64,000 nt of DNA, taken from positions 1 through 64,000 of the forward strand of contig SVFC01000012.1 in the NCBI GenBank assembly GCA_015057035.1. Direction: 5' to 3'. The first letter of the stretch is position 1; every line of letters starts with the position of its first letter. Origin of the DNA: Lachnospiraceae bacterium (GTDB lineage: Bacteria; Bacillota; Clostridia; Lachnospirales; Lachnospiraceae). The translations under genes and the position numbers were made by a program. The notes below the pieces were generated by a model. That model was not told where the DNA came from. It searched no databases and saw nothing but the letters and a program-made list of their open reading frames with translations. This document shows positions 44,974 through 62,697 of this stretch, piece after piece.

Positions 44974-44989
44974 TTTTAACTTTTATTAA

Positions 44990-45083: not shown

Positions 45084-45112
45084 TTGACTATCTACAAATT
45101 ATTTTCTATAAT
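45084..45112 (+). promoter_or_regulatory. SigA promoter of the ArsR-type regulator
   Basis: TTGACT (45084-45089) and a perfect TATAAT (45107-45112) with a 17-bp spacer, about 50 bp before the ATG. It is arranged back to back with the GH43 promoter. Confidence 0.85.
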
Positions 45113-45118
45113 GTTAAG

Positions 45119-45140
45119 TAGTTTAATTGTTTATAAACTA
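45119..45140 (+). promoter_or_regulatory. candidate autoregulatory operator, TAGTTTA-N8-TAAACTA
   Basis: A perfect 7-bp inverted repeat spans about +1 to +22 of the regulator transcript. Its right half, TTTATAAACTA, recurs in the GH43 leader. Confidence 0.6.
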
Positions 45141-45161
45141 AATTAAGGGGGAATCGACAAA

Positions 45162-46532: not shown

Positions 46533-46585
46533 CAAAAAGAGCCTTGCAACATCCTGTGCACAAACACAAAATGCCACAAAGCTCT
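46533..46585 (-). terminator. terminator of the protease-Opp operon
   Basis: On the minus strand, a 9-bp stem AGAGCTTTG/CAAGGCTCT (one G-U pair) with a 30-nt loop is followed by TTTTTG. It starts 11 bp beyond the last gene. Confidence 0.65.
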
Positions 46586-46595
46586 CCACATCTGT

Positions 46596-46850
46596 TTACA
46601 TAATCAAAAATGCTAATGCTGCAATCCCGAATATCACACATAGGAATCCGATTACTACCAGCATTGGTTTGAACATCATCTTAACGGCTGACCAGTAGGT
46701 TTCCCAGATATCCTTGAAGGATGAGGTGGTTCCTGGTCCAAATTTTCCGAAGCCGCCTGATACGTTAGACATATCAGCGAAGCTTCTGCCGTCATCGATG
46801 TATGTAATCTTTTCTTTTTTCTTTTTGTCTTTCTTTTCTTCTGTTGCCAT
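46596..46850 (-). CDS. small membrane protein at the end of the Opp operon
   Basis: An 84-residue protein: a Lys/Glu-rich head (1-15), a Gly/Ser/Phe-rich middle (residues 25-50, including SGGFGKFGPG), then one or two membrane helices (about 58-83). The ATG at 46850 has GGAGG five bases upstream; two earlier ATGs overlap that site. Function unknown. Its place after oppF, on the same strand and before the terminator, suggests a role with the importer, perhaps as an accessory membrane subunit. Confidence 0.65.
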   Translation of the reverse strand: MATEEKKDKKKKEKITYIDDGRSFADMSNVSGGFGKFGPGTTSSFKDIWETYWSAVKMMFKPMLVVIGFLCVIFGIAALAFLIM

Positions 46851-46862
46851 CATTACCTCCAT

Positions 46863-46992
46863 GGACAGAAAATAAACTTCTCATCATAGAATTTCGCTTT
46901 GCGAAATTCTCCGCCTGCGACGAGTCGCTGAAAGCGACATATTTCCTTACCGGCGCAGTGCGATATATGTCATTGTCATTTATTGGTGGAGT
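46863..46992 (-). repeat. hairpin-dense intergenic segment between oppF and the small membrane gene
   Basis: Within 130 bp there is a 10-bp perfect hairpin with a 3-nt loop (46888-46897 with 46901-46910) and a 6-bp hairpin GTCGCT/AGCGAC (46924-46938). A GACATAT/ATATGTC pair encloses a G+C-richer loop up to about 46979. It resembles a REP-type intergenic element or a stabiliser/attenuator for the upstream transporter mRNA. Confidence 0.5.
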
Positions 46993-48003
46993 TTACTCTT
47001 CCAATAAGTGACATGCAGCGCAATGTCCATTGCCATAATCCTTATACTCTGGTGTTACTTCCTTACAGATGTCCTTAGCATATGGACAACGTGTGTGGAA
47101 ACGGCAACCCTTAGGTGGGTTGGCTGGTGAAGGAATATCGCCATTTAATACGATACGATTCATCTTCACATCTGGGTCTGGATATGGAATCGCAGAGAAT
47201 AATGCCTTTGTATATGGATGAAGTGGATTATCGAAGATCTCCTTCTTGTCACCAAATTCCACCATAGAACCTAAGTACATAACGCCAATCTTATCAGAGA
47301 TGAATTTAACTACTGATAAGTCATGGGAAATGAATACATAGGTAAGGTTCATTTCCTGCTGTAATCTCTTAAGCAAGTTGATAATCTGCGCCTGAATTGA
47401 TACGTCCAAAGCGGAGACTGGTTCGTCACAGATAACAAGCTTAGGATTTACAGATAATGCTCTTGCGATACAGATACGCTGTCTCTGTCCACCAGAGAAT
47501 TCGTGTGGGTATCTTTCGAAATAGTAATCACGAAGGCCACACTTATCCATCAGATCTAATACATAATCCTTCACTTCTGCCTTAGGTACAATGTTGTGTA
47601 CTTCTACTGGCTCTGAAAGGATTCCACCAACTGTATCTCTAGGTGGTAAGGATGAATATGGATCCTGGAAAATGATCTGCATCTGCTTACGAATGTCACG
47701 CATCTGGTTTGATTTCAGGTTTGTGATGTCCTGACCGTCAAAAATAATCTGACCGCCAGTTGGTTCGTGAAGTTTTAAGATGGTTCTACCAAGAGTCGTT
47801 TTGCCACATCCAGATTCTCCTACGATACCGAGAGTTTCACCTGGTTTTAATTTAAAGGATACATTATCTACTGCTACTAACTCCGAGGTAACTTTACCAG
47901 TAATTGTTTTCTTTAATGGGAAACATTTACGGATATTGCGAACCTCAAGAATTGCTTCTGGGTCAAATGGTGTGTCTTTTGAAATTATCTGTTCATTAGC
48001 CAT
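46993..48003 (-). CDS. oppF: oligopeptide ABC transporter ATP-binding protein OppF
   Basis: A 336-residue ATPase: Walker A GESGCGKTT, signature SGGQRQRI, Walker B VICDEPVSALD, and the C-terminal OppF/DppF region with cysteines (CRFHTRCPYAKDIC) that in this family can hold an iron-sulphur cluster. With OppD it drives peptide import. The start overlaps the oppD stop (TAATG). Confidence 0.95.
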   Translation of the reverse strand: MANEQIISKDTPFDPEAILEVRNIRKCFPLKKTITGKVTSELVAVDNVSFKLKPGETLGIVGESGCGKTTLGRTILKLHEPTGGQIIFDGQDITNLKSNQMRDIRKQMQIIFQDPYSSLPPRDTVGGILSEPVEVHNIVPKAEVKDYVLDLMDKCGLRDYYFERYPHEFSGGQRQRICIARALSVNPKLVICDEPVSALDVSIQAQIINLLKRLQQEMNLTYVFISHDLSVVKFISDKIGVMYLGSMVEFGDKKEIFDNPLHPYTKALFSAIPYPDPDVKMNRIVLNGDIPSPANPPKGCRFHTRCPYAKDICKEVTPEYKDYGNGHCAACHLLEE

Positions 48004-49151
48004 TATTTAAGACCCTCTTCGTACAAGTGACAGGATACAAAATGTGTTGGGCTTACCTGAATCATTTCAGGATAATCTCCAGAACATTTCGCTGTGCACT
48101 TTGCACATCTTTCTTTGAAATAACAGTAGTTTGGCATGTTGATAGGGTTTGGAACGTTACCAGGAATGTTGTAAAGTTCCTCACTATCAGAATCTAAAGT
48201 AGGTTTAGATTTCTGCAAGCCGATGGTGTATGGATGTAATGGATTGTGGAAAATCTCATCAACAGTACCTTTTTCAATCACACGACCAGCATACATTACT
48301 ACTACATAATCTGCCATCTCAGCGATGATTCCAAGGTCATGGGTAATCAACATGATAGAACCGTCAATCTTGTCCTTTAAGTCACGGAGCAGGTCAAGAA
48401 TCTGCGCCTGAATAGTAACGTCAAGGGCTGTTGTTGGTTCGTCTGCGATAATAAGTCTTGGGTCGCTGGCAAGAGCCATAGCGATCATAACACGCTGACG
48501 CATACCACCAGATAATTCGTGTGGGTAAGCACCATATACACGCTCTGGCATTGCAATACCTACGAGATTTAACATCTCGATAGATTTTGCTTTTGCTTCT
48601 TCTTTTGTTGCTTTTTCATTATTGATAAAGGTTACTTCATCCAACTGTTCCCCGATAGTGAAAATAGGATTTAAAGAAGTCATTGGCTCCTGGAAAATCA
48701 TAGCGATTTCACTACCACGGATTTTATGAATGTCACGCATTGGCATCTTAGCGATGTCAAAGGTCTTTTCTTTTGCTTTAAAACGAATTTCACCTGAGTA
48801 AATCTGTCCTGCAGGTCCCTGGATGAGACGCATAACAGACATACTGGTTACGGATTTGCCACAGCCAGATTCTCCTACGATTCCAACTGTCGCATGTTTT
48901 GGAATATCCATGGAAACGCCGTTTACCGCTTTTACAACACCCTGTTCTGTGAAGAAATAGGTGTGAAGATTATCAATCTCAAGGATGTTATCTTCGCTGT
49001 GCATCTCAGTCAGATATTCTGACTCATCAGCTTTACGGTTTTTGTAGGCTTCCAAACGTTTCATTACCTTAGCATTTTCCTTAGCAATGGCACGTATTTC
49101 TTTTCCAGACAGATAATTCCTACCGGATTTTTTCTTATCAAATAAACTCAT
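48003..49151 (-). CDS. oppD: oligopeptide ABC transporter ATP-binding protein OppD
   Basis: A 382-residue ATPase with an N-terminal basic extension of about 50 residues before the ABC domain. Walker A GESGCGKSV, signature LSGGMRQRV, Walker B LIIADEPTTALD, and a C-terminal cysteine-containing oligo_HPY region (CYFKERCAKCTAKC). Second ATPase of the Opp complex. Confidence 0.95.
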   Translation of the reverse strand: MSLFDKKKSGRNYLSGKEIRAIAKENAKVMKRLEAYKNRKADESEYLTEMHSEDNILEIDNLHTYFFTEQGVVKAVNGVSMDIPKHATVGIVGESGCGKSVTSMSVMRLIQGPAGQIYSGEIRFKAKEKTFDIAKMPMRDIHKIRGSEIAMIFQEPMTSLNPIFTIGEQLDEVTFINNEKATKEEAKAKSIEMLNLVGIAMPERVYGAYPHELSGGMRQRVMIAMALASDPRLIIADEPTTALDVTIQAQILDLLRDLKDKIDGSIMLITHDLGIIAEMADYVVVMYAGRVIEKGTVDEIFHNPLHPYTIGLQKSKPTLDSDSEELYNIPGNVPNPINMPNYCYFKERCAKCTAKCSGDYPEMIQVSPTHFVSCHLYEEGLK

Positions 49152-49154
49152 TGC

Positions 49155-50231
49155 TTATCTCCTTGCTTTCGGGTCAAGAGCATCTCGTAAACCATCACCA
49201 ATAAAGTTGAAGCCAAGTACCGCGATTACGATACATACACCAGCTGGAACCCATACGTTTAAGTGGTTCTGTAAAATGTCTTGATTTGTGGAAATAATGT
49301 TAATCATAGTTCCCCATGCAGCGTATGGTGCCTTAACACCAAGGTTTAAGTAAGAAAGGGTTGCTTCGTAAATAATCATACTACCTAAACTCAAACTCAT
49401 CTGCACGATTAACTGTGGCATAACATTAGGTACTAAGTGTTTGAAAATCTTTCTTGATGTGGAATATCCCATCGCTTCTGCCGCTACCATGTATTCCTGC
49501 TCACGAAGAGAAAGAATCTGTCCACGTACAAGACGTGCAGTACCAGGCCATGAGATGAAGGTCAGGTAAATCATCATCAAGTAAATACGATATTTTGCAT
49601 CAATATCTGATGCATCCAAAATAGTACTGATAATAAGCAGAATTGGAATACCTGGCAGACAGATAAGCACGTCACAAAGACGCATGATTACGTTATCAAT
49701 CCAGCCTCCGAAGTATCCTGCAATACCACCAAGGATTACACCAAAAATGGTAATTAAGAATACCGCCAAAAAGCTTACAATCAGTGAAATTCTACCACCA
49801 TACATAAGTCTTACGAAAATGTCGTAACCTTCGTTGTCCGTTCCCAAAATATGTTCTGCGGAAGGTGGTGCCAGGAAATTATCCTTTAAGGTTTTTTCTG
49901 TAGTCTGTCTTACGGTGTAAGTTACGCCGTTGACAGTGTATGTAGTCTCTGCGGTAGCATATTCTGTTTTGCCACTTTCGTCCAACTCGATTTCGCCCCA
50001 CTGGGTATATACCAGTGGTCCTACGAAACTGAACAGGAACAAACCGATTACCATGATAAGTCCAACGATACTCAGTTTAGAACGGAAAAATCTACGAACT
50101 ACCATCATAGTAGGAGACATTAAGCGTACATTTTTATCAAGAGGCACTTCTGTATCTTCTACAGTTTCCACAGCCGCTTCTGCTGTTTCTTCTACTACTT
50201 CAGAGCCAACTTTGTTTGTATTTTCTTCCAT
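49155..50231 (-). CDS. oppC: oligopeptide ABC transporter permease OppC
   Basis: A 358-residue permease with six membrane helices, an acidic cytoplasmic N-terminus (about 35 residues, Glu-rich) and an external loop insert (about 80-130) after the first helix. The EAA motif AAEAMGYSTSRKIFKHLVPN contacts the ATPases. It lies 3 bp before oppD and 11 bp after oppB. Confidence 0.94.
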   Translation of the reverse strand: MEENTNKVGSEVVEETAEAAVETVEDTEVPLDKNVRLMSPTMMVVRRFFRSKLSIVGLIMVIGLFLFSFVGPLVYTQWGEIELDESGKTEYATAETTYTVNGVTYTVRQTTEKTLKDNFLAPPSAEHILGTDNEGYDIFVRLMYGGRISLIVSFLAVFLITIFGVILGGIAGYFGGWIDNVIMRLCDVLICLPGIPILLIISTILDASDIDAKYRIYLMMIYLTFISWPGTARLVRGQILSLREQEYMVAAEAMGYSTSRKIFKHLVPNVMPQLIVQMSLSLGSMIIYEATLSYLNLGVKAPYAAWGTMINIISTNQDILQNHLNVWVPAGVCIVIAVLGFNFIGDGLRDALDPKARR

Positions 50232-50242
50232 AGCGCGCCTCC

Positions 50243-51235
50243 TTACTCTAATTTTACTCTAGGGTCTACGATACCGTACATAAGGTCGGCAAGAAGAACA
50301 CCTAATACACTAAGCAGAGCCAGGAACATGTTGTATCCCATGATAAATGGAATATCACCACGGTTCATTGCGTCCAAAGCGATATTACCGATACCAGGTA
50401 AGTCGAATACCTGCTCTGTGATGATTGCACCAGAGAACAGGGATGGAAGCAAGCCTGCCAATGAGGTTACTAATGGAATCAATGTATTACGGAAAGCGTG
50501 TTTGTTAATAACTACACTCTCCTTGCATCCCTTAGCACGAGCAGTACGAATATAGTCGGAGTTCATAACTTCCAGCATATTTGTTCTGGTCATTCTCATA
50601 CGAGCACCGATACTTAAAATAACGATGGTGAGAATTGGGATGAATACGTGTCTTGCATAGTCTGCAAGAAGTGCCATTCCAGATAATGATGTTGTAGCAT
50701 CTATGAGGCCTGAGGCTGGGAACCATCCCAGCTTCAGAGCCAAAAAGTCTTTTAACATGTTACCAAAGAAGAATGAAGGCAATGATAAACCAATCATAAC
50801 GAAAATGGTAACAATATAATCACGTAAACTGTACTGATGAGTTGCTGCAGTAATTCCAAGAGGAATTGCGATCATGAACTCAAAAATAGTTGCGATTAAG
50901 GAAATTGCAAAGGAAATTCCCATGTGCTGGAAAATAACATCTGCAACTGGAGCCGCATGTACAAAGCTGATACCTAAGTCAAAACGACAAAGAGCTAATA
51001 ACCAACTAACGTATCCAGATAAAATTCCAATAAAGCTATCATCGCCGAGTCCATACATCTTATACATGGCATCTACAGTTTCTTGACTAACTGTTGCCCC
51101 ACCCTGATTCATTGCATCGATTTTACTCTGAATAAAGTCAACCGGCATCAATCGGATAAGGAAATATATGATCATTGAAACACCCATCAGGATGAACAAC
51201 GACATTGCCAATCTTTTTAAAATATACTTAAACAT
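50243..51235 (-). CDS. oppB: oligopeptide ABC transporter permease OppB
   Basis: A 330-residue permease: N-terminal signature YILKRLAMSLFILMGVSMIIY, six membrane helices, and the EAA motif TARAKGCKESVVINKHAFRN. Pairs with OppC. Starts 15 bp after oppA. Confidence 0.94.
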   Translation of the reverse strand: MFKYILKRLAMSLFILMGVSMIIYFLIRLMPVDFIQSKIDAMNQGGATVSQETVDAMYKMYGLGDDSFIGILSGYVSWLLALCRFDLGISFVHAAPVADVIFQHMGISFAISLIATIFEFMIAIPLGITAATHQYSLRDYIVTIFVMIGLSLPSFFFGNMLKDFLALKLGWFPASGLIDATTSLSGMALLADYARHVFIPILTIVILSIGARMRMTRTNMLEVMNSDYIRTARAKGCKESVVINKHAFRNTLIPLVTSLAGLLPSLFSGAIITEQVFDLPGIGNIALDAMNRGDIPFIMGYNMFLALLSVLGVLLADLMYGIVDPRVKLE

Positions 51236-51250
51236 AAGTCACTCCGCCTT

Positions 51251-53824
51251 TTATTTAGCAAACTCAATTTCCCAAATCTTATCAAGTGGTGAAGAATATG
51301 GATTTACTTCACTTGGAATTGTTGATGCATCAATTACCTTAGAGTTGTATGAATATAATACACTTCTCTGGTAAACTGGAAGTTCGATTGCAAGGTCAAG
51401 AATATATCCCATTGCTTCTTTGTAAAGCTCTGCACGAACTGCCTGGTCGTTAGTTTCACGGGCCTGATCGATTAAATCACTAAGTTCGTCTAAGATCTTT
51501 AATTCATCATCTGTTCCGTTTGTCTTTAAGTGGTTGTAGCCCCAAGCAAGTGTACTTGTTGCTGTAGAATCCTTGTGGTATACCTGGTAAAGGTCTGGGT
51601 CAAGTGCTGAAGACCAAGCAGCTGCCCATACTTCTAAGGAACCTGTGTTAATCTTGGTAAGTGCCTGTGTATCACAAACTACTTCTACATCCCAGCCAAG
51701 TTCATTTAAGAGCGCTGCTGCATCTCTAAATACTTTGTATGTAGGATGATCTGTAAGTGAAGAACCAGCGATTGTAAATGTTACTTTTAACTGGCTATCG
51801 CCTGCGGAAACGCCAGCTTCCTGCATATATTTTTCAATATTTGCAATAGCTGAATCTTTGTTCCATGTTCCAAGGCTTGGATAATCTTTACCGTTGTCTG
51901 TCTTGTCTGCTCCTGTTGGATGAGCCCAGCTTACAAGTGACATTGGCCAGTAAATCTGAGAAGCTGTACCAGCACGGTAGTAGTCAAGTGCTAAAGAAGT
52001 ATTCATAGCACACATAATTGCTTTACGAAGGTTAATATCTGTAATCTTAGAAGAGTTAACACCGATGTAACCATAACCTAACTGGTCTGTTGAAAGTGTA
52101 TTCATACCTTTTGCTTTTAACGCTTCTAATTTTTCATAGTTGTCTGTTGTAAGAGCAGGTGAGATATAATGTACTGCACCACTCTCTAACTGAGCAATTG
52201 CGTTCTGTGAGCTTACAATCTGGTAACGAATCTTTTCAATCTTAGCATTGTTGATACCAGCACCAACAGTTTCAAAATTGTTGTTTGCTTTGAAATAAAC
52301 AACGTTGTTTACATAGAAATCGTTCTGTCCTGGAGTATCGCTATTCTGAGAATCTGATACTTTGTAAGCACCAGCACCCATTGGTAACTTAATGTTTCTT
52401 GTTGACTGAATAACTGTTGTCATAAAGTCAAAGCTTGCAAATTCAACACCGAACTGGTTCTTTGCAATATCTACGCCAACCTTAGATCCTTCACCATAGT
52501 AGTGCTGTGGAGCAACTGTGATTGCGAAGTTCCAGATAGCTTTAGGGTCGATACCATCGATTGTAATCTGTAATACATCGTATTCGTCTGCATTTGTTAC
52601 AGTGCCATCTGCATTGTGACCAGATGCAACTTTGTAATCTGTTCCGTTAACTTTGATTGTTGTACCAGCAGCATCTGTATGTCCTAAAGAAACGATACCA
52701 GAGATGTTCTGCACTGCTAATGTACCATCAGAAGATACATTTTCATGAAGGATAACTTCTTTTGCTTTTGCTGTATACTCTGTAGTAAGTGTTGTACCAG
52801 TTGCCCAGTACTGAAGGATAACGTTTAACTCTCTGGCAATCTTGTCGTTATATACATAATCAATTGCCTGTTCTTTTGTTTTTACGGAATCAGGGTATCC
52901 TTTTGTCAACTTTTCAATGTTTGTACGGTCAATCTTGCCATCCACTTTAGCATATTCAACATCAACGTAACCTTCTGTGTACATAAAGCAGAAGATTTCA
53001 TCTTTGAATTCATCATGCTTATCATATGGTGCATCTACATAAGATTCCTGCGCACTTACATAGTCAGTTTCTAATTCTTCTTTGAACAGCTTTAATGCAT
53101 ATTCATAGTCGTTTAAAAGATTCTGGCTGTTGATTGTAGAAAGTTCACTTGGAACTGCCAATGCCTGTTTGTAACCATTGCTTACATTGTGAGCAATAAT
53201 TGCAGACTTCATTTCGTCATAGCTTACTTCTTTTGTGGAAGAAGCTTTTAATTTTGCATTAAAGAGGTTGATAAGTTCGTTCTTACGAGCTTCTGCTCTT
53301 GCAGCTGCAAGGTTTGAAATCTTATCATCTTCATCTCCACCACCAGATGTTACAGTCTGTGTTCTATATTCGTTCAGACCAAGAATATCTGTGGAATAAA
53401 GTGTGTTAGAACCAGTGTAAACTGGGTCAAGGTATACATAATAGTTAAATAATACGTCTTCCATTGTTAATGGATGTCCGTCAGAGAACTTGATACCATT
53501 CTTTAAAACGAATCTGTATGTTACAGTTCCGTCTGCATTTTCTGTAATATCATAATCTTTTGTTACTACTGCTTCATTGTCGCCATAAGCAACCTGAACC
53601 TTACCATTTTCATACTTAGAACCAAGCATACCAATCTGTGTCATAGACACGATAGTTCCGTCTGGTGCAGCGGTGTAGAAGAATGGATTAAACAGACCAT
53701 CTAACTGTTCTGTCATAATTACGAAAGCATCTTTCTTAGCGGAAGTATCTCCACAAGCTGTTAAAGATGCTACCATTGCAATGCTTAATACTAAGCAAAG
53801 AACTCTGGACCAAATCTTTTTCAT
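51251..53824 (-). CDS. oppA: oligopeptide-binding lipoprotein OppA, enlarged
   Basis: An 857-residue SBP_bac_5 substrate-binding protein, far above the usual about 550. A lipoprotein signal with lipobox LTAC (Cys24) anchors it outside. The family signature FVLKNGIKFSDGHPLT is near 108-123. An added helical segment (about 165-400) containing an Ala/Lys/Glu-rich region and a possible small beta insert splits the fold. A larger cleft or contact with the neighbouring protease is an inference. Located between the surface lipoprotein and oppB. Confidence 0.92.
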   Translation of the reverse strand: MKKIWSRVLCLVLSIAMVASLTACGDTSAKKDAFVIMTEQLDGLFNPFFYTAAPDGTIVSMTQIGMLGSKYENGKVQVAYGDNEAVVTKDYDITENADGTVTYRFVLKNGIKFSDGHPLTMEDVLFNYYVYLDPVYTGSNTLYSTDILGLNEYRTQTVTSGGGDEDDKISNLAAARAEARKNELINLFNAKLKASSTKEVSYDEMKSAIIAHNVSNGYKQALAVPSELSTINSQNLLNDYEYALKLFKEELETDYVSAQESYVDAPYDKHDEFKDEIFCFMYTEGYVDVEYAKVDGKIDRTNIEKLTKGYPDSVKTKEQAIDYVYNDKIARELNVILQYWATGTTLTTEYTAKAKEVILHENVSSDGTLAVQNISGIVSLGHTDAAGTTIKVNGTDYKVASGHNADGTVTNADEYDVLQITIDGIDPKAIWNFAITVAPQHYYGEGSKVGVDIAKNQFGVEFASFDFMTTVIQSTRNIKLPMGAGAYKVSDSQNSDTPGQNDFYVNNVVYFKANNNFETVGAGINNAKIEKIRYQIVSSQNAIAQLESGAVHYISPALTTDNYEKLEALKAKGMNTLSTDQLGYGYIGVNSSKITDINLRKAIMCAMNTSLALDYYRAGTASQIYWPMSLVSWAHPTGADKTDNGKDYPSLGTWNKDSAIANIEKYMQEAGVSAGDSQLKVTFTIAGSSLTDHPTYKVFRDAAALLNELGWDVEVVCDTQALTKINTGSLEVWAAAWSSALDPDLYQVYHKDSTATSTLAWGYNHLKTNGTDDELKILDELSDLIDQARETNDQAVRAELYKEAMGYILDLAIELPVYQRSVLYSYNSKVIDASTIPSEVNPYSSPLDKIWEIEFAK

Positions 53825-53860
53825 TGTCTTACTCCTTTTCTTTAAAAATAAATATTTATC

Positions 53861-55180
53861 CTATGGTGTAACGATTGTGGCTGTTACCTGATTGCCTGTT
53901 ACTTCAATCTGAACGTTTTCTGGGTTGTCGCCAGTTGCTTCGCAAGTGATCTCACTCTCTACCACAGCTGCATTACCCATACCACATACTAAACCGATGG
54001 TATAATCTGTAACGCCAAAATAACACTTAGAATCAATCTTTAAGGTACTGCTTAAGATTTTTACATTGCTAATCTGTGCAGCATCTGAAATAGTACCAGC
54101 AAATAATCCGTAACTTGTACCAGCTACACGAGTACCTGCCTGAATTGTAAAGTTGACATTTTCAAATGTCACATCTGAAATGCTTGCTTTCTCTGTTAAG
54201 TTACCAAATAAACCAGCATTTACTTTTGAATTATTTGTCTGTCTGAAGGTAATGTTCTTGAAAACATGCCCATTACCATTGATTTTGCCATTGAAGTTAC
54301 CATACATCAAGGAAGTAGGCCAAACTTCATCTGTAAAATCAAGGTCTGCGTGAATTTCATAATACCCATTCACACTTGCATTCTTGATAAACTGTTCTGC
54401 TGTATAGATGTGGAACCACTCTCCTTCTACGTAGTCTACGTAAAGCTTCATGGTCGAGTTCTTAGCCACACCATTGTTATAGTCAACAACACCAGTATGA
54501 ACAAGAGTCTCTGTTGTTACAGGATTCTTGCCTTCTGCGTCAAGATAAACACCTTCAAAGGTATATCCCTTTTTCTCTGGGAACTCAAACATCTCAATTG
54601 CACCTGTTTTTTCATCCCAGGTTGGAACCTTGATGTCTTCCACAAGAGTTGGGTCAAATACATATGTATTTAATAACTCTCCATCTGATAAAGAGTAAAA
54701 TTCGATTGTAAACATTGGAACCCATGCTGCATAAAGAGTCATAACTGGTTCCGAAGCTGAGTAGGTCTTGCTTGGATCTACTTCAACTACATCTTTTTCA
54801 AAATCCCATTTATTGCCATACACATAAGTTGCATTGCCATTTTCATCTAAGGTTTCTGTACGTTCTGCGTACCAACCTGCCAGGAAATAACCATTGCGAA
54901 TAGCAGTAAAGGCATCATTGCCTCTTAAGGAATTGTCTGGAGAAATCAATGCGATTTCAGCATTTCCCTCACTATTTGGAGTCATTCCTGTGATGTTAAA
55001 GGAATCCACAATCACAGAAGTATTTGTGGTGAAAACACCCCCGTTAGCGTCGTATTTCACGCTAACGGAGTAGTTTTCTGCATCATTTTTTTCGTATGGT
55101 GATGTTTCAGCTGCACATCCCGTCAGGAGGCTAACTGTTCCTAATGTCAATAAAGCGATTACAAGTGCTTTAATTTTCAT
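53861..55180 (-). CDS. surface lipoprotein with InlB-type B repeats and GLUG-like domain
   Basis: A 439-residue lipoprotein, lipobox LTGC (Cys22). Residues about 40-240 hold repeats of the Listeria InlB B-repeat/flg_new type (YDANGG, then GYFLAGWY; GYTFEGVY). Residues about 265-400 are a GLUG-like solenoid segment (NGKINGNGHVFKNITF, then AGLFG). The start lies 11 bp inside the end of the protease gene, with GAGGTGG in that gene's coding sequence, so the two are translationally coupled. It could be an adapter or substrate-binding partner of the protease; that is inferred from coupling only. Confidence 0.8.
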   Translation of the reverse strand: MKIKALVIALLTLGTVSLLTGCAAETSPYEKNDAENYSVSVKYDANGGVFTTNTSVIVDSFNITGMTPNSEGNAEIALISPDNSLRGNDAFTAIRNGYFLAGWYAERTETLDENGNATYVYGNKWDFEKDVVEVDPSKTYSASEPVMTLYAAWVPMFTIEFYSLSDGELLNTYVFDPTLVEDIKVPTWDEKTGAIEMFEFPEKKGYTFEGVYLDAEGKNPVTTETLVHTGVVDYNNGVAKNSTMKLYVDYVEGEWFHIYTAEQFIKNASVNGYYEIHADLDFTDEVWPTSLMYGNFNGKINGNGHVFKNITFRQTNNSKVNAGLFGNLTEKASISDVTFENVNFTIQAGTRVAGTSYGLFAGTISDAAQISNVKILSSTLKIDSKCYFGVTDYTIGLVCGMGNAAVVESEITCEATGDNPENVQIEVTGNQVTATIVTP

Positions 55181-58100
55181 CTTCTACCACCTCTTCGTTG
55201 TTTTCGATTTCATAGAATTCAACTTCTACTTCGTCTTCTTCAACTTCATCTACATTTTCAGTTACTTCTTCATTTTCCATCTCGTAGAATTCAACTTCTA
55301 CTTCTTCCTCTTCCTTCTTCTTTGAAGTAAGTTTTCCAAAAAGCGCCTTAATCTGTACGTTATATCTACTTACTACATATGCGCCACCGCAAAGAACTGC
55401 TGCCACAATTACAATAATCAGAAGTCCTACCCCGTCAAAACTAAATTCTGGCACTGCGTCTGCTGGCTCATCTACTACAGGAGTAAGAGCGATAATACGC
55501 TGTTCTGCTGTAATCAGGTCTGCATAGTTTGTAACCAAAGCCTGCTGTTCAGTTGTAGCAATCTTGCTGTAAGCAGCACGAGCCGCTTCTACTAACGCTT
55601 TGTCTGTATAAGCAACTCTCTCTGGAATTGCTTTAATTGCTTTAATCGCAGCCATTGTGATATCGTCTGGAGCTGTTGGTCCGTCAATCACAAGGTCAAA
55701 ATACTGGTTGGTAATGAAGGTATCATAATGTTCTCCGTTCACTGGGCGAACCATAATGAGTTTTTCATCTACATATCCTACATAATCTACGAATGTTGCA
55801 CCATAGTATACGTTAGAATACATTCCACCAGTTACGTTCCACATAAAGTATGGAACAAGGCCCATACCATTAATCTGTACTTCGTTTCCATCATAATCAG
55901 TATAGGTTCCATAGTCACCAGCACCTGGAACATGCTCGAAACTATCATAGTAGGTTGGATCAAATTCTTCTTCTAAAATTGGAGCATCGAAGCTGCCAAA
56001 TACTACGATTTCAAGGTTCTCGCAGTCAAAGAATGCTTTGTGTCCGATTGCACCTAAGGTATTAGGAAGTGTTACCATTGAGAGGCCGGCTCCTGCAAAT
56101 GCCATAGAAGTAATACGAACGGTATCTTCTGTTACCTTGGCATTTTCTGGATTTAATCCTGTATAAACGATAAGTTCCCAACCATATGGTACTTTTGAGT
56201 AAAGAGAACCATCTACAACTTTAACTGTTGGACTGATTTCGTAAGTTACGATCAATTTATCCACTTCGTGGTCATTGATTTCTTCTTTACCCATAATAGC
56301 AAAAGGTTTGATTGTACACATTGCAAATGGGTTGTCGCCCAGACTTTCAATGTTTTCACCTAATACTACGTTAAACTCTGTTAATTTTTCCTTTATGAAA
56401 GCCTGTGTACCAATGTACTTCGCACCTGAAAGGTCTGCAGAAACGATGGATGTATAAGCAAATGCCCAATCACCAATGGTTTCTGATTTGTTTAAATTTC
56501 CAACATTTGCAAGAGTCTCACAATATGTGAAAGCACCTTCATCAAGATTTGTTCCTTCTGGATTTAATGTAAGTTCAGTCAGATGTTTGTTATTAACAAA
56601 TGCGTATTTGCCAACTTCTTTTGCTGCAGATAAATCTGCTGCACGAACATCTGCTTCCATAAATGCGTAGTCACCAAAGGTAACAATCTTGCCAAGGTTG
56701 ATGTTCTTCAAAGATTCGCAACCTGCGAAGGTATATTCTGGAATCTCTGTAATTGCATCACCTAATTTTACGTTTACTAAATCTCTACAGTAAGAGAATG
56801 CATGAGCGCCAACTGTTGTTGCAGATGTAAGATCCACATTTTCAATTGCTGGAGCATGGTAAGTATACATGTATGTTCCCTGTTTGCTTACTGCAGCATA
56901 CTGCATATTGTCATCCAGGCAGATATTATATACGTCACCAGAGAATGCATATTCTCCGATGGATGTTACTTTAGATAAATCAATGTTCTTTAAACTCTGG
57001 CAGTTGTAGAATGCCTGTTTTTCAATAACAGCGTTTTCACCTAAAGTAACGGATTCAAGACTTGCTGCATATGCAAATGCATGCTCGCCAATCACTACGT
57101 TATTACCAATAGTTACGTTCTTAAGTGCTGTTGCGAAGTCATAATAGAAGTACTTCTCTCCGTCTTCGTTATAGTTCTTAACGGTGTAACATTCATCTTT
57201 GTTTGTTGCAAATGCAAAGTTACCAAGAATTACGTCATTGCCTACCACTACAGTCACTAACTTGTTACATTCTGCAAATACACCTTCTGCAACTACCATC
57301 TTGTCTGGAATCGTTACAGATGTTACCTGGCTGTATGCAAATGCATATTTGCCGATTTCTGTATCTACAGTGAAGTTTGGTAACACTGTAATTCCTGTTT
57401 CGAAGAATGCATATTCTCCGATTTTGTCAAGTTTTCCTAATGTAATAGAAGTTAAATACTTGTTAGATGCAAATGCATAAGAACCAACTTCTGTTACGTG
57501 ATCTAATACGATGGATGTAATCTTGGTGTTGTGTGAAAATGCACCATTGCCTACGGAAGATACTACAATTCCATCAATATCTTCAGCATCAAAATCTCCT
57601 GTTACCGTTGGAGCTACAGCAATGAGCTGTTTTCCATCGGCAGAAAGAATATAGTTTTTGCTCTGTACTTTGTATGTCTGGTTGCCTTCTGAGATAACAA
57701 AAGTATCAATTAAGGTATCTCTAAATGCGAACTCTCCAATGTCATTTACTGCTGCACCGATGGTAACTTTGGTTAAGTTATCACATTCGTAGAACATTCC
57801 TTCTGGAAGAACTGCGGAGTTTACATAGAACTCTGTTAGTGATTCACATCCAGTAAATGCGTAAGTGCCGTATTTTACTTTTTCTGCTGTAATGGTTACA
57901 GTAGAAAGGTTTTTACATGCTGCAAAAGCGTAAGAGCCGATAGAAATTAATGCATCACCTGTTGTAACGCCTTTTAACTTCTGGTTGCCTGCGAATGCAT
58001 AATCCGAAATTATACATACAGAAGACAAATCCAATGTTCCGCTTAATGCACAGTTTTCAAATGCACTCTGGTTAATAATCTTTAAGTTATTTTCTCCACT

Positions 58101-61100
58101 GAAGGTAATCTTCTCTAAAGATGTACATCCGTAGAATGCACCGTATTCAATCGCTTCCAAAGTAGAAGGTAATACAACCTCCTGTAACGCAGTTAAGTTG
58201 GCAAATGCATACGCACCAATCTTCTTCACGCCTTCTGGGATAACAACCTTTGTAATGGTGTTTTCACCGATGTACCATTGCTTTGTTGCTTCTGCATCGT
58301 CAAACTCTAATTCTTCTGGAGTCTTAGCTACATAGTCAAAGTTTGAAAAAGCAAAGTTGCCGATTTCTGTCAGGGACAGGTCAGCTGGAATTGTTACAAG
58401 ACCGCCGTTACCATAATAGTGAGTCAGGCTTGCACCTGTCTGGATATATGGATTCTTAACTTCTACAGAAACTGTTTCTGAGTAGTAAGTGCTCTTGCCA
58501 TCCATCATAACCTTAATGGTTACAGAGGCAAAACCTTCTGCTACTGCTGTTACTTTTCCTGTCTTGTCAATAGTAACAATGTTTTCGTTACTTGATTCAT
58601 ATTCCACAGTTGTGTCATTTGGGAAATATGCATCTAACGCATAATTTAAGTAAAGTGATTCAGATGGATACAGTGACAGGTTGTAATTACCTTCAAAGAA
58701 GTTCTTGCTTCCACTATCACCGATTTCTTTATCTTCACTATTTAAAATGTAGTAGGCTTTGACTGTATTAAAACCAATCAGTTTAAATACATCTGCTACT
58801 GGTTTATCGTATTTTCTGAATCCTTCGTCACCTTCTTTTAAGACGGTTACATTGAATGTAAAACTCTTGTTGGTCACTGGATCAGAAACTTTGATAATCG
58901 CTTTACCACTGGATACTGCTACTAATTTGTCGTTTACTACACGCACAACACCTGGTCTGGAAGAAGCAAATTCTAACAATTCGCCCCATTCTGTTACTGG
59001 GTTTACGATTGGCGCCAATGAGTAAACTTCGTTAGGACTAAGGGTAAGTCCTTCTTCAAGACCATCCATGTAGAATTCCTGGAAGTCATCTGGCAAACCA
59101 ATTTCGTAAGTCGCATAGTTCAATGCGTAGTCATAAAGGGTTACTACGAAGGAGTTACCATTCATGGCATTGTTTTTGATATCGTAAATGTAATCTGTTA
59201 ATTCGTATTTTACAGTGGTTACACCATTACGTTCTGAGTAAATTGGTGTCATATACTGTTCAAATAACTGAATCTCTGGAATTGCATTGCCTTCTTCATC
59301 TTCGCCCATTGTTACATAGCCAAGCTGTGAAGACATTGCATAATGGTTATCATATACTTTTACTTCTGCATAAAGACGATTCTTTTTCGCAGTTTTATCA
59401 TATTCATAATAGAAGTGTACGTCCTGAACTGTTGGCGCCTCAATGTCAATTGTCATTGGGAAGCTGAAGGTATTCTTCTCGTTCGAGATTTTACCACCAT
59501 CAGTACCATAATCTAAGGAACCTTCTAAGAGAACTTCTAATTCTGTATTATTTGCAAAATTGTAATCGATCGTATCGAATTCGATTTCAATGTTTGCTGG
59601 GTAGATGGAACCACCATCACCATAGGATTTACGCACATCGGTATCCGTTGTTTCAAAAACAACCTCACCTGTGGTTTTGTCCTTGATTGTAATATCAACC
59701 TTAGCTGCATTTCTAAGGAGACCTGCCCAAACATATCTTAAGGAATGAATGGTTCCTTCCTGGTTAGAAAGGGAAATGTGATCTCTGTTAGAAGGAATTA
59801 CCATATCCTTAGGATCCTGAAGGAAGTAGTAAGAACCAAGGTAGCTTACGTAGTCTTCACTTACTCCACCAACTGGACGGGTTGCATATGCATCTGGCAT
59901 AAGCTTATCTTCTACTGAGATGCCGTCGTCTAATTCATCTTTATTGGTATCGAAGTATTCTAAGTCGAATAATGGAGCAACTGTCCAATCGCCGTAGAAC
60001 GCAAGATATGGAACGCTTAAGTTCACTTTTGTTCCTTTTTCAGCAGTTAATGTAATGTAGCCTTCTACATACATACCATTTGCAAAGGATTCATTTAAAT
60101 ATGCTTTGTCAGCATCGCTTAATGTGATTGTCACTGTAACATCTGCTTTTTCACCAGGTTTTACAGTTACCTTTTCACCCTTTAATGTGCCACCAGATAC
60201 TGTGGTGATTTCAACTTTTGCTCCGTCAAGGATGTATCCCTGTTCAGTAACAGTTGTTTCACCAGCGTTTGTCTTGGTATCGCTAACGCCTTCTGTCATA
60301 ACATAAGCGCCAAGCTTATATGTTAACTCTGTTTCACCGAAGTTATTTACAGTGAAGTTTAATACATATACACCATTTTTTTCTGGGTCATCGCCAAGTT
60401 CAATCTTGGTTTTGTCCATTACGTTGCCGTTTTTATCTTTGGTTGTAATGTAACCTGTAGTTGCCAGTGCGCTCTCTAAGTTTGCAAGACCAGCACCCTG
60501 TTTACGAACTGCGTATGGTAAACCATTGGTGTTCAGCGCAATGTCTGCAGTTGACATCAAAAGCTGATATACCATTGCTGTTACTGCTACGTTGTCATTA
60601 GCAATCTCAGGGAATTTTTCTACAACATACTGTCTTAATAAAAGTACTAAACCTGCAAGGTTTGGACATGCCATGGAAGTACCAGATAAACGTTCGTAAG
60701 AACCACCTGTAACAGCAGAAAGAATGTTTCCACCGTGAGCAGTGATTTCTGGTTTGATTCCAAGGTCTGGTGTAGGTCCCCAAGAGGAGAAGTCGGAAAT
60801 GAATGGACCAGAGGTCTGGGAAACACTAATAGTGAACTTTCCACCGCCTGTTTCTGCTAACATCTCACCTTCATCCTGTGAGATAGAACATACTGCCAGA
60901 TTTGCATCACCAACGTTCATCTTAATATCACCAGATACGTTATTGTAAATGATGATACCTGCAGCGCCCTGCTTTTCAGCAATGATAGCTTTTTCCTCGA
61001 AGGTATTCTGACCACGACGTACAAGAACAATCTTGCCAGTTACATCTACACCTGTGTAGTCCGCGGTACGACCTACACCTGGGATTACTACGAATTCATA

Positions 61101-62507
61101 TTCCTTGGAGGTTTCATCGCCAAGCAAATCTTCGAAGAAATGCTTCTCTTCGCTGGCGTTGTTATTGGCCTCTGTGAAATAAATAATTTTTCCGTTATAA
61201 GTAAGGTATGGTGTCTTAGTTCCGCTGATAGAAGCTACTGACATGGTTCCTGCATATGTACCAGGTGAACCAACGGTACCAGTATCAGGGTTTGATGTAA
61301 GACCTAAGTTACCATTTGCTTCAGAACCATATGCTGAACTGTAACTGTTAGATGCAGCAACGATAACGCTGATACCAGCTTCTCTGATTCTGTCGTATAC
61401 ACCGTTTAACACTTCTTCGTCAGACTCACGGCTGAAGCCACAAGCTGTACCAAGGGACATATTGATTACGTCAACGCCAAGTACAACACAGTCTTCCAAA
61501 GCGGATAAAATCCAAGTTGCACGAGCAGTGTCCATAACGTCAGAGAAAATCTTCATTGCAACTAACTGTGCATTTGGAGCAACACCTGTGATAGTGTCAT
61601 CCTTACCTACGATAACACCAGATACGTGAGTACCATGGTTGTTATGTGTTGAATATGGATCAGAATCTCCGTCTGCATAGTCGAAACCGAATGGAACTTT
61701 GTTGTTGATAAATACATCATCAACGGTAAGACCATCTACAAGCTCACTTGCAACAGTATCTTTGATTACTGCTGCTACGTCCTGATATGTAAGACCAAGG
61801 TTTGTAGAAGTGAAGTTGTTTGGCGAGAATGCGGTGTGGTTTGAATCAAGACCAGTATCAAGAACTGCCACTACCATTCCGCTTCCGTCATATCCTGATG
61901 CAGAACTGTCAAAAATACCAGTTCCTTCGTAGATGCTAACTGCGTTTTCTACAAGTTTGGTTTCTGCTGCTTTGTACTCTTCACCGATAATTGCTGTTGC
62001 GCCTTTTCCAAGGGACTTGCAAGTATCTGTAAAATCACCAGCTTTGATTCGGATTTCAAAACCACTGATTACAGTGTTGTAATCCTCGCCGATGGTGTAC
62101 GCTACACCTTTTTTATCTAATTTTTCAAGAATCTGTGCTTTTCTCTCTGCAATCTCTGCTTTGATATCTGCAGCGTCATCACTGTAGAGTGCATAATCTT
62201 TAAAACTCATAGTTTTATTCGTTTTATCATATGCATCCATAATTGTGATGGTATCCAGAGAAATGATGACTGAGATTTCCTGATCATCCTTGATTCCTTC
62301 TGGAAGTCGGAACATTACATTGTTATCAAAAAACTTGGTAATGTCTCCAGTTGTAAGCACGTTTTCCAATCTCTCAACAAAGGAAGCTGTATGTTTTCCA
62401 TCAGAAGCCAATGTTAAATCCGCTGGAAGATACACGCCTAACATTCCAAAAATTAACAGAAATGCCAGAACTCTCTTTCCCATTTGAGCAAACATGTTTT
62501 TCTTCAT
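55170..62507 (-). CDS. giant membrane-anchored S8 protease with PA, Big2 and BspA-type LRR domains
   Basis: A 2445-residue surface enzyme of the C5a-peptidase/PrtP-like subtilases. A signal peptide (about 1-35) and prodomain (about 40-190) precede the catalytic domain: Asp217 (VLDTGLD), His291 (NNHGTH), oxyanion Asn387 and Ser611 (GTSMACP). A PA insert lies at about 430-560. Then Fn3-like domains, a Big2 domain (about 1360-1430) and a run of BspA-type LRR_5 repeats (about 1440-2180). Near the end are a helical FIVAR-like segment, one membrane helix (about 2375-2395), a basic stop, and a highly acidic tail with two copies of EVEVEFYE. There is no LPxTG motif; the tail should be cytoplasmic. 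First gene of the peptide-import operon. Confidence 0.9.
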   Translation of the reverse strand: MKKNMFAQMGKRVLAFLLIFGMLGVYLPADLTLASDGKHTASFVERLENVLTTGDITKFFDNNVMFRLPEGIKDDQEISVIISLDTITIMDAYDKTNKTMSFKDYALYSDDAADIKAEIAERKAQILEKLDKKGVAYTIGEDYNTVISGFEIRIKAGDFTDTCKSLGKGATAIIGEEYKAAETKLVENAVSIYEGTGIFDSSASGYDGSGMVVAVLDTGLDSNHTAFSPNNFTSTNLGLTYQDVAAVIKDTVASELVDGLTVDDVFINNKVPFGFDYADGDSDPYSTHNNHGTHVSGVIVGKDDTITGVAPNAQLVAMKIFSDVMDTARATWILSALEDCVVLGVDVINMSLGTACGFSRESDEEVLNGVYDRIREAGISVIVAASNSYSSAYGSEANGNLGLTSNPDTGTVGSPGTYAGTMSVASISGTKTPYLTYNGKIIYFTEANNNASEEKHFFEDLLGDETSKEYEFVVIPGVGRTADYTGVDVTGKIVLVRRGQNTFEEKAIIAEKQGAAGIIIYNNVSGDIKMNVGDANLAVCSISQDEGEMLAETGGGKFTISVSQTSGPFISDFSSWGPTPDLGIKPEITAHGGNILSAVTGGSYERLSGTSMACPNLAGLVLLLRQYVVEKFPEIANDNVAVTAMVYQLLMSTADIALNTNGLPYAVRKQGAGLANLESALATTGYITTKDKNGNVMDKTKIELGDDPEKNGVYVLNFTVNNFGETELTYKLGAYVMTEGVSDTKTNAGETTVTEQGYILDGAKVEITTVSGGTLKGEKVTVKPGEKADVTVTITLSDADKAYLNESFANGMYVEGYITLTAEKGTKVNLSVPYLAFYGDWTVAPLFDLEYFDTNKDELDDGISVEDKLMPDAYATRPVGGVSEDYVSYLGSYYFLQDPKDMVIPSNRDHISLSNQEGTIHSLRYVWAGLLRNAAKVDITIKDKTTGEVVFETTDTDVRKSYGDGGSIYPANIEIEFDTIDYNFANNTELEVLLEGSLDYGTDGGKISNEKNTFSFPMTIDIEAPTVQDVHFYYEYDKTAKKNRLYAEVKVYDNHYAMSSQLGYVTMGEDEEGNAIPEIQLFEQYMTPIYSERNGVTTVKYELTDYIYDIKNNAMNGNSFVVTLYDYALNYATYEIGLPDDFQEFYMDGLEEGLTLSPNEVYSLAPIVNPVTEWGELLEFASSRPGVVRVVNDKLVAVSSGKAIIKVSDPVTNKSFTFNVTVLKEGDEGFRKYDKPVADVFKLIGFNTVKAYYILNSEDKEIGDSGSKNFFEGNYNLSLYPSESLYLNYALDAYFPNDTTVEYESSNENIVTIDKTGKVTAVAEGFASVTIKVMMDGKSTYYSETVSVEVKNPYIQTGASLTHYYGNGGLVTIPADLSLTEIGNFAFSNFDYVAKTPEELEFDDAEATKQWYIGENTITKVVIPEGVKKIGAYAFANLTALQEVVLPSTLEAIEYGAFYGCTSLEKITFSGENNLKIINQSAFENCALSGTLDLSSVCIISDYAFAGNQKLKGVTTGDALISIGSYAFAACKNLSTVTITAEKVKYGTYAFTGCESLTEFYVNSAVLPEGMFYECDNLTKVTIGAAVNDIGEFAFRDTLIDTFVISEGNQTYKVQSKNYILSADGKQLIAVAPTVTGDFDAEDIDGIVVSSVGNGAFSHNTKITSIVLDHVTEVGSYAFASNKYLTSITLGKLDKIGEYAFFETGITVLPNFTVDTEIGKYAFAYSQVTSVTIPDKMVVAEGVFAECNKLVTVVVGNDVILGNFAFATNKDECYTVKNYNEDGEKYFYYDFATALKNVTIGNNVVIGEHAFAYAASLESVTLGENAVIEKQAFYNCQSLKNIDLSKVTSIGEYAFSGDVYNICLDDNMQYAAVSKQGTYMYTYHAPAIENVDLTSATTVGAHAFSYCRDLVNVKLGDAITEIPEYTFAGCESLKNINLGKIVTFGDYAFMEADVRAADLSAAKEVGKYAFVNNKHLTELTLNPEGTNLDEGAFTYCETLANVGNLNKSETIGDWAFAYTSIVSADLSGAKYIGTQAFIKEKLTEFNVVLGENIESLGDNPFAMCTIKPFAIMGKEEINDHEVDKLIVTYEISPTVKVVDGSLYSKVPYGWELIVYTGLNPENAKVTEDTVRITSMAFAGAGLSMVTLPNTLGAIGHKAFFDCENLEIVVFGSFDAPILEEEFDPTYYDSFEHVPGAGDYGTYTDYDGNEVQINGMGLVPYFMWNVTGGMYSNVYYGATFVDYVGYVDEKLIMVRPVNGEHYDTFITNQYFDLVIDGPTAPDDITMAAIKAIKAIPERVAYTDKALVEAARAAYSKIATTEQQALVTNYADLITAEQRIIALTPVVDEPADAVPEFSFDGVGLLIIVIVAAVLCGGAYVVSRYNVQIKALFGKLTSKKKEEEEVEVEFYEMENEEVTENVDEVEEDEVEVEFYEIENNEEVVEDEN

Positions 62508-62589: not shown

Positions 62590-62618
62590 ATCTTATCGCA
62601 TTTTGGTATAAATTGCAA
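62590..62618 (-). promoter_or_regulatory. promoter of the protease-Opp operon
   Basis: On the minus strand, TTGCAA (62613-62618) and TAAGAT (62590-62595) are 17 bp apart. The leader of about 75 nt contains a 7-bp hairpin GCATAGT/ACTATGC (around 62553-62571), which may be regulatory. Confidence 0.5.
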
Positions 62619-62668: not shown

Positions 62669-62697
62669 TTTACATTCATTTTTCCTTGTGTTATACT
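62669..62697 (+). promoter_or_regulatory. promoter of the membrane protein / polyferredoxin genes
   Basis: TTTACA (62669-62674) and TATACT (62692-62697) with a 17-bp spacer, about 35 bp before the ATG at 62732. Confidence 0.7.

What the first reader, a model, noticed from the sequence alone, without database searches (positions are those of the whole stretch)
46596..62507. Self-contained protein-eating locus: giant surface protease directly coupled to a full Opp peptide importer
One minus-strand run encodes a 2445-residue cell-anchored subtilase, a translationally coupled surface lipoprotein, OppA-B-C-D-F and a small membrane protein. One promoter precedes it and one terminator follows. Lactococcal PrtP and Opp work the same way but are not normally one operon. 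This looks like the protein counterpart of a polysaccharide utilisation locus, with degradation, capture and import in a single unit.
Basis: partly seen in the sequence, partly recalled or inferred. Interest (0 to 1): 0.7.

Follow-up and report, generated by a model that had tools for sequence, protein, structure and literature searches.

The report
Reduce-cut-import locus for eating protein
Gut bacteria of grazing animals carry one gene block that appears to cut outside proteins with a giant surface protease, import the pieces, and, through companion genes, break the disulfide bonds that make proteins hard to digest.

Summary
In detail: an 8-gene minus-strand operon for an S8-LRR protease, a lipoprotein, OppA-B-C-D-F and a small membrane protein. 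A scan seeded only on OppA gave 42 loci, 31 of them labelled ruminant hindgut. All 29 that no contig end cuts keep the whole order; in 3 of these protease and lipoprotein are fused into one frame. A conserved promoter precedes the protease in 30 of 31 loci. Two further modules co-occur: a divergent pair (CXXC membrane protein; NapH-like 4Fe-4S protein fused to a TlpA thioredoxin) and a set of TlpA lipoproteins. The main TlpA lipoprotein is in 27 of 33 locus-bearing genomes (25 near full length) and 0 of 47 genomes without the locus. Fused NapH-TlpA is in the 3 locus-bearing species of the window's genus; none of the other 59 showed it. Best reading: a mobile 'reduce, cut, import' system for disulfide-bonded protein. 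Shown: gene order, co-occurrence, fusions, intact active-site residues. Inferred: substrate, electron flow, peptide uptake. None of the results listed by ten text searches describes it.

The parts
55170..62507 (-). Giant S8A-type subtilase: signal peptide, PA insert, fn3_5, Big_2, BspA-type LRR_5 repeats, C-terminal TM helix (about residues 2361-2379) and acidic cytosolic tail; D217/H291/S611, oxyanion N387
   Evidence: these four residues invariant in 32 of 32
53861..55180 (-). Surface lipoprotein (lipobox LLTGC by eye), overlaps the protease end by 11 nt; fused to the protease in 3 relatives
51251..53824 (-). OppA-like lipoprotein, 857 aa; distant relatives align to residues 26-174 and 409-854, leaving an insertion of about 230 residues
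   Evidence: best solved match AppA 1xoc
50243..51235 (-). oppB permease
49155..50231 (-). oppC permease
48003..49151 (-). oppD ATPase
46993..48003 (-). oppF ATPase
46596..46862 (-). Small membrane protein, basic N-terminus, single C-terminal TM; no family above cut-off; found after oppF in 36 of 42 loci (the other 6 are cut by contig ends before it)
62590..62618 (-). Conserved promoter-like site of the operon (TTGCAA, 17 nt, TAAGAT)
46539..46584 (-). Terminator-like hairpin after the operon
62669..62697 (+). Promoter-like site of the divergent redox pair (TTTACA, 17 nt, TATACT, TG extended)
62732..63175 (+). Redox pair gene 1: CD1871A-family CXXC membrane protein, C-terminus ICTECIGLG
   Evidence: NF040920, 39.9 bits, cut-off 32
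63181..64000 (+). Redox pair gene 2: NapH-like 4Fe-4S membrane protein fused to a TlpA/ResA-type thioredoxin (486 aa; runs out of the window to contig position 64641)

Best explanation
This is one arm of a surface system for using protein as food. The TM-anchored S8-LRR protease cuts extracellular protein. The lipoprotein and the enlarged OppA sit beside it, bind the fragments and pass them to OppBCDF for ATP-driven import (inferred from families). The divergent gene pair and the TlpA lipoproteins are the second arm: electrons from a cytosolic donor pass through the NapH-like 4Fe-4S membrane protein and its CXXC partner to an extracellular TlpA domain, and from there to lipoprotein thioredoxins, which reduce disulfide bonds in substrate proteins so that the protease can reach them. 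Shown: gene order, co-occurrence, fusions, intact S8 residues, CxxC motifs, a conserved promoter before the operon. Inferred: electron path, substrate, peptide specificity, benefit of reduction for cutting.
For: (1) OppA-seeded scan: 29 of 29 uncut loci keep all eight genes in order, 3 of them with protease and lipoprotein fused; the other 13 of 42 are cut by contig ends, and what they hold is in the same order. (2) Redox pair divergent from the protease, 0.6-1.2 kb away, in 24 of 30 relatives whose protease start is seen, downstream in L138; downstream genes outside the TlpA set form clusters of at most 4. (3) Full-length NapH-TlpA fusion in 3 of 3 locus-bearing genus members; 17 of the other 59 match over the NapH part only, 42 not at all. 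(4) The 957-residue TlpA lipoprotein: 27 of 33 locus-bearing genomes (25 near full length, 2 short), 0 of 47 without; 1 of 250 in the family of L111's genome, itself. (5) The set lies 29-61 nt behind the small gene, same strand, in 5 loci, and just upstream of the protease in L123. (6) A distant genome, G923, keeps TlpA protein, redox pair, opp genes and protease within about 24 kb. (7) CxxC in 29 of 29 NapH-TlpA and 25 of 25 TlpA lipoproteins; S8 residues in 32 of 32. (8) Related Opp clusters carry an M3 oligopeptidase gene 25-775 nt upstream in 10 of 37 loci, and OppF passes the cut-off of a dipeptide-transporter subfamily model (418 of 408 bits); both fit peptide import.
Against: No expression, biochemical or growth data. 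SBP_bac_5/Opp families also carry non-peptides, and OppA, OppB, OppC and OppD score below all NCBIfam cut-offs shown. 6 of 33 locus-bearing genomes lack the TlpA lipoprotein; 1 of 33 lacks NapH-TlpA and 2 match only its NapH part, though some MAGs are incomplete. The redox pair is not next to the protease in L112, L123, L140, L146, L147 and L149. Of the 25 genomes with a full-length TlpA lipoprotein, 15 have it on the operon's contig within about 20 kb, 9 on another contig, and G472 about 100 kb away. In the class sample G1047 has the protease but no NapH hit at the threshold. Unfused NapH-like genes, often with a TlpA gene beside them, are common without this locus. NapH-TlpA identities correlate no better with OppA (r 0.46) than with RpoB (r 0.60) over 14 genomes, so transfer of all modules as one block is not shown. 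The protease has 21 cysteines, so the thioredoxins may serve the cell's own surface proteins.
Confidence: 0.6

Rival explanations
1. Protein-utilisation operon only. Protease, lipoprotein and Opp cooperate, and the redox genes are a neighbouring system that keeps the cell's own exposed proteins (such as the Cys-containing LRR repeats) reduced.
For: Six of 33 locus-bearing genomes lack the TlpA lipoprotein; in six of 30 relatives the redox pair is not beside the protease; in 20 of 26 unfused NapH-like loci inspected a TlpA gene lies nearby without this locus; protease frames carry 15-31 Cys in 32 genomes.
Against: A general maintenance system would not be confined to locus-bearing genomes: fused NapH-TlpA not seen in 59 congeners, TlpA lipoprotein in 0 of 47. 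The TlpA set is found on either side of the protease operon.
Confidence: 0.25
2. The protease is a colonisation or immune-modulating surface protein (like C5a peptidase or the chemokine proteases) and the transporter takes up a signal peptide or another ligand, so the locus is about host interaction rather than feeding.
For: The closest solved proteases are C5a peptidase and chemokine proteases; the LRR part weakly resembles the adhesin HupY/LrrG (120 bits, cut-off 1250).
Against: Those enzymes are LPXTG-anchored (recalled); here 0 of 32 frames end in LPxTG. A dedicated ABC importer and thioredoxins have no obvious place in that role. The locus is spread over many lineages and six ruminant hosts.
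Confidence: 0.1
3. Gene order reflects a shared mobile or syntenic block with no joint function.
For: The operon moved between some lineages: two groupings taken from the rpoB tree are rejected for it (p 9e-4 and 5.5e-42; chosen after both trees were seen).
Against: Downstream flanks are not conserved, yet the modules occur together in different arrangements; protease-lipoprotein fusion on three branches.
Confidence: 0.05

Closest known systems
Lactococcal PrtP + Opp proteolytic system
   Same: S8 cell-envelope proteinase and Opp importer for casein nitrogen; prtP and opp both plasmid-borne (PMC5372332, passages)
   Different: prtP is described there as monocistronic; PrtP is sortase-anchored and needs the PrtM foldase (both recalled); no fused lipoprotein or redox module known to me
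Gram-positive polysaccharide utilisation locus (gpPUL)
   Same: One locus with extracellular depolymerase, binding lipoprotein and ABC importer (recalled; gpPUL papers seen only in the listing)
   Different: Protease instead of glycoside hydrolases; no regulator seen among the conserved genes; a thiol-redox module
Staphylococcus aureus aureolysin + Opp3 growth on collagen
   Same: Extracellular protease and Opp jointly support growth on protein (PMC6495380, abstract and passages)
   Different: Different protease; no redox partner in the passages seen; that its gene is unlinked to opp3 is recalled
Keratin degradation by protease plus disulfide reductase
   Same: Reduction of disulfides opens the substrate for proteases (PMC8260994, passages)
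   Different: Reductases are reported there as separate activities; no linked import operon in the passages seen
CcdA/ResA/TlpA and NapH-type electron relays
   Same: Membrane carrier passing electrons to an extracytoplasmic thioredoxin (role recalled; families)
   Different: Here NapH-like part and TlpA are one protein with a CD1871A-type CXXC partner beside a protease locus; 0 papers of the library mention CD1871A

Membership tests
S8A cell-envelope proteinase (CEP: PrtP, C5a peptidase) | Subtilase triad with PA insert followed by fn3_5 | tested here: met
S8A cell-envelope proteinase (CEP: PrtP, C5a peptidase) | LPXTG sortase anchor | tested here: not met
   0 of 32 in the last 60 residues; C-terminal TM helix instead
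S8A cell-envelope proteinase (CEP: PrtP, C5a peptidase) | NCBIfam SGO_0316 subfamily membership | tested here: not met
   248 bits against cut-off 1400
Opp/Dpp peptide ABC importer | SBP family 5 lipoprotein, two permeases, two ATPases with oligo_HPY | tested here: met
Opp/Dpp peptide ABC importer | Match above an NCBIfam Opp/Dpp cut-off | tested here: inconclusive
   OppF passes a dipeptide-transporter subfamily model (417.6 of 408 bits); OppC 323 of 350 (Opp4C); OppA, OppB, OppD further below
Opp/Dpp peptide ABC importer | Peptide binding and transport | not testable with these tools
   needs binding or transport assay
gpPUL-like utilisation locus | Co-located depolymerase, binding lipoprotein and importer conserved in relatives | tested here: met
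   29 of 29 uncut loci
gpPUL-like utilisation locus | Substrate-responsive regulator in the locus | tested here: inconclusive
   none among the flank genes that cluster across loci; flank genes not shared between loci were not annotated
TlpA/ResA thiol-disulfide oxidoreductase | CxxC in an AhpC-TSA/Redoxin fold, exported | tested here: met
   CxxC in 29 of 29 and 25 of 25; domains by Pfam; ResA best solved relative
NapH | NapH/MauN model above NCBIfam cut-off | tested here: not met
   77 bits (L138) and 75 bits (part in the window) against 213; NapH-like only
CD1871A CXXC family | NF040920 domain above cut-off | tested here: met
   39.9 bits against 32

The most novel reading that the evidence does not exclude
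A previously undescribed class of nutrient locus: bacteria couple cytosolic reducing power, through a fused NapH-TlpA membrane wire and lipoprotein thioredoxins, to reductive unfolding of extracellular disulfide-bonded protein (for example mucin, antibodies or plant protease inhibitors), genetically linked to a giant surface protease and a peptide importer, and exchange this kit between lineages in the herbivore hindgut.
Probability: 0.4. Interest if true: 0.85.

Novelty: new variant of a known kind. Interest (0 to 1): 0.7.

Why it matters
How hindgut Clostridia obtain nitrogen from intact, disulfide-bonded protein is, to my knowledge, little studied. A conserved, movable locus joining extracellular reduction, cutting and import would give marker genes for that ability, suggest a role for an unstudied redox family (CD1871A with NapH-TlpA), and allow a direct test of whether anaerobes spend reducing power to unfold food proteins. 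All 31 relatives with a gut-segment label come from cecum, colon or rectum; how many genomes of other segments the collection holds is not known here.

Tried and rejected
Vertical descent only: rejected for parts of the tree (the two groupings were chosen after seeing both trees), but not for the Lachnospiraceae members. In the six-protein tree the window, L125 and L130 form one clade, against my first impression from OppA alone (there that clade was not rejected either, p 0.21). The split of Lachnospiraceae from the rest is likewise not rejected (p 0.08).

Protease linkage as a general property of this OppA family: rejected as far as seen. In 37 loci around more distant OppA genes none shows the protease directly upstream; several of the 37 are cut close to oppA. 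L048 has a cut S8 frame 6.6 kb away and L038 a weakly matching one about 5 kb away.

NapH-TlpA fusion as a common Clostridia gene: not found in the 26 other NapH-like loci inspected, that is 9 genus and 8 class loci and 9 long-frame or borderline class hits (the tenth region, G114, was fetched for its short TlpA match). The remaining hits and a second, 466-aa frame in G172 were not inspected.

RNA regulator: no Rfam family at gathering score in 40000-64000. The oppF-small spacer as a repeated element: one inverted repeat has no second copy in the window, the other no exact match in the 291 loci held. My first gap-and-promoter script misplaced protease starts; the promoter part was redone; three large negative oppD-oppF gaps are frame-assignment errors of the script. 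Structure prediction of lipoprotein and OppA never ran.
Full report
WHAT IS THERE. On the minus strand, 62507 down to 46596, eight frames follow each other closely. The first is a 2445-residue subtilase. Pfam finds Peptidase_S8 (208-673) with a PA insert (481-550), fn3_5 (714-835), Big_2 and several LRR_5 stretches. The chain ends in a TM helix and an acidic tail, with no LPXTG motif. The next frame starts 11 nt inside the protease's end and codes for a lipoprotein with no family above cut-off. Then come OppA (857 aa; distant relatives align on both sides of about 230 extra residues), OppB, OppC, OppD and OppF, and an 88-residue membrane protein. A long hairpin follows. Rfam shows nothing at gathering score in 40000-64000. 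The window lies in a 2.4-Mb genome of 40 contigs, 84.7% complete. Its genus contains the genomes of two loci labelled Agathobacter (G163 has a 66052-base contig as L125 does, G164 a 51934-base contig as L130 does), so it is Lachnospiraceae.

IS THE ORDER CONSERVED? A scan of genome contigs seeded with OppA alone, so that the protease was not part of the query, gave 42 loci. In 26 all eight genes are present as separate frames in the same order and strand. In three more (L112, L140, L141) the only difference is that protease and lipoprotein form one frame of 3016, 3038 and 2988 residues. The remaining 13 are cut by a contig end within the operon, and what they hold is in the same order; in L114 OppA is broken into two frames. 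In the fusions the lipobox region is replaced by a second TM helix: protease outside, TM, 112-175 residues inside, TM, lipoprotein domain outside (topology inferred from hydropathy). L140 keeps a lipobox-like stretch at the second helix, by eye. The fusion needs three changes on the OppA tree. Gaps are short: medians 38.5 nt protease to lipoprotein, 35.5 lipoprotein to oppA, and 18, 12 and 3 nt for oppA-B, B-C and C-D. A promoter-like site TTGC(A/T)(A/T), 17 nt, TA..AT with a partly conserved spacer (AAAATRCGG) precedes the protease in 30 of 31 loci, against a mean of 0.6 in shuffles. The oppF-small spacer is 130 nt in the window and 120 in its congener L125, unlike the other 35 relatives measured.

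WHAT IS OLDER. In three Lachnospiraceae genomes (G024, G127, G315) a relative of the lipoprotein (28-32% identity over its best stretch) stands with oppABCDF without an adjacent giant protease; in G315 it lies behind oppF, and only G024 and G127 also show a small gene. So lipoprotein and Opp probably form the older unit and the protease was added. Around 37 loci with more distant OppA genes no protease is seen directly upstream; in 10 an M3 oligopeptidase gene lies 25-775 nt upstream, which fits peptide import. Several of the 37 are cut near oppA.

THE SECOND ARM. Upstream and divergent from the protease stand two genes. The first is a CXXC membrane protein of the CD1871A family. The second, which runs out of the window, is a 486-residue protein with a NapH-like 4Fe-4S membrane part fused to a TlpA/ResA-type thioredoxin. 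Of the 30 relatives whose protease start is seen, the pair is divergent-adjacent in 24, by contig coordinates of NapH-TlpA. In L112, L123 and L140 NapH-TlpA is elsewhere, and L146, L147 and L149 show none beside the protease. In L138 the pair lies downstream. Among 33 locus-bearing genomes searched, NapH-TlpA was found in 32: 29 full length, one split over contigs, two over the NapH part only. It was in none of G024, G127, G315. In the window's genus the full fusion is in the 3 locus-bearing genomes; of 59 others, 17 match over the NapH part only and 42 not at all.

THE THIRD ARM. Beyond the pair, the window's contig carries four further genes: a 957-residue and a 1040-residue lipoprotein with an AhpC-TSA/Redoxin domain, a 421-residue and a 146-residue lipoprotein (lipoboxes by eye). 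Relatives of these lie 29-61 nt behind the small gene, same strand, in L114, L120, L143, L145 and L151 (not all four are visible in each, because of locus ends), and part of the set lies directly upstream of the protease in L123. In 11 of the regions fetched, which were picked because one search put the genes there, the set sits beyond the redox pair as in the window. The 957-residue protein has matches in 27 of 33 locus-bearing genomes: 25 near full length (four of these with one in-frame stop in the aligned stretch) and two short. It has none in 47 genomes without the locus, namely 44 of 59 genus members plus G024, G127 and G315. Of the 25, 15 have it on the operon's contig within about 20 kb, 9 on another contig and one (G472) about 100 kb away (from coordinates). 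It is in 1 of 250 genomes of the family of L111's genome, that genome itself, at E 1e-60. In 149 Lachnospiraceae genomes it is in 2: the window's own, and G114 with a short match. A Fisher test on 27/33 against 0/47 gives 7e-16, but the genomes are related and the comparison genomes were chosen.

CLASS-WIDE CHECK. Among 391 genomes of the class, the protease's middle region is in five: the window's genome and four of one other family. For NapH-TlpA, 68 of 391 match at E 1e-60. The three strongest after the window's own are G1082, G923 and G964, all protease-bearing; the fifth protease genome, G1047, is not among the 68. These three carry a fused form and the CTECIGLG partner. In 26 other NapH-like loci inspected none is fused, and 20 of the 26 have a separate TlpA-like gene within the stretch seen. 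G923 keeps a TlpA protein, the redox pair, opp genes and protease within about 24 kb although its proteins are far diverged; the frame at the lipoprotein's place there was not matched. G1047, G964 and G1082 carry the eight-gene operon; in G964 and G1082 the redox pair is on another contig.

MOBILITY. For 17 genomes with usable rpoB, the operon's proteins are more alike than RpoB in 113 of 136 pairs. Between Lachnospiraceae and others the distance ratio operon/RpoB is 0.52-0.76 (about 1.0-1.1 for L146), but between the window and L125 of its own genus it is 5.1. Groupings supported by rpoB are rejected for the operon (L120+L123, p 9e-4; L134+L120+L123, p 5.5e-42; chosen after seeing both trees), while the split between Lachnospiraceae and the rest is not (p 0.08). 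The Lachnospiraceae operons form one clade in the six-protein tree. So transfer between some lineages is supported, but number and direction of events are not. NapH-TlpA and TlpA lipoprotein identities correlate with RpoB (r 0.60, 0.58) at least as well as with OppA (0.46, 0.44) over 14 genomes, so it is not shown that all modules moved together. Binning errors in MAGs could add noise (the genome of L140 shows two rpoB genes).

MECHANISM. The S8 triad and oxyanion residue are intact in 32 of 32 proteases. CxxC is present in 29 of 29 NapH-TlpA and 25 of 25 TlpA lipoproteins. By family knowledge (recalled), NapH-type proteins belong to membrane electron transfer and TlpA/ResA proteins reduce disulfides outside the cytoplasm. 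The simplest account is: reduce, cut, import. Electron flow, substrate and peptide uptake are not shown. The protease itself has 21 cysteines, so the thioredoxins could also serve the cell's own surface proteins.

LITERATURE. Ten full-text searches were run. Each lists at most 20 papers of sometimes very many hits; none of those listed looked like a description of such a locus. CD1871A, five phrases for a protein or peptide utilisation or degradation locus and one combination gave no papers. Passages were read in PMC8260994, PMC6495380 and PMC5372332, and the abstract and outline of PMC10535647. Subscription journals and preprints were not covered.

Noticed in passing
window 46863-46992: The spacer between oppF and the small gene is 130 nt with inverted repeats; the congener L125 has 120 nt, other relatives almost none. 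Looks like an insertion shared within the genus.
   Followed up: partly
L045:9034-10734 and similar in L042, L047, L048, L049, L051, L053, L054, L064, L102: Related Lachnospiraceae Opp clusters have an M3 oligopeptidase gene upstream of oppA; many also have an OppC frame of 510-600 residues.
   Followed up: partly
window 21228-22898: A second, 556-residue S8 subtilase with a similar frame on contig C2 of the same genome.
   Followed up: no
window 32234-36850: A 1538-residue protein with GLUG repeats.
   Followed up: no
window 42112-46088: Beyond the terminator lie a melibiase-like and a GH43 gene and a winged-helix regulator on the other strand: an apparently unrelated carbohydrate locus.
   Followed up: no
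L183:2834-5101: A 755-residue surface protein with a sorting-signal-like end (by eye) between the redox pair and the TlpA lipoproteins; no Pfam family.
   Followed up: no
L114:55-2628: OppA is broken into two frames in an otherwise intact part of the operon.
   Followed up: no
L111-L152 (titles): All 31 relatives with a gut-segment label come from cecum, colon or rectum; the number of genomes per segment in the collection is unknown.
   Followed up: partly
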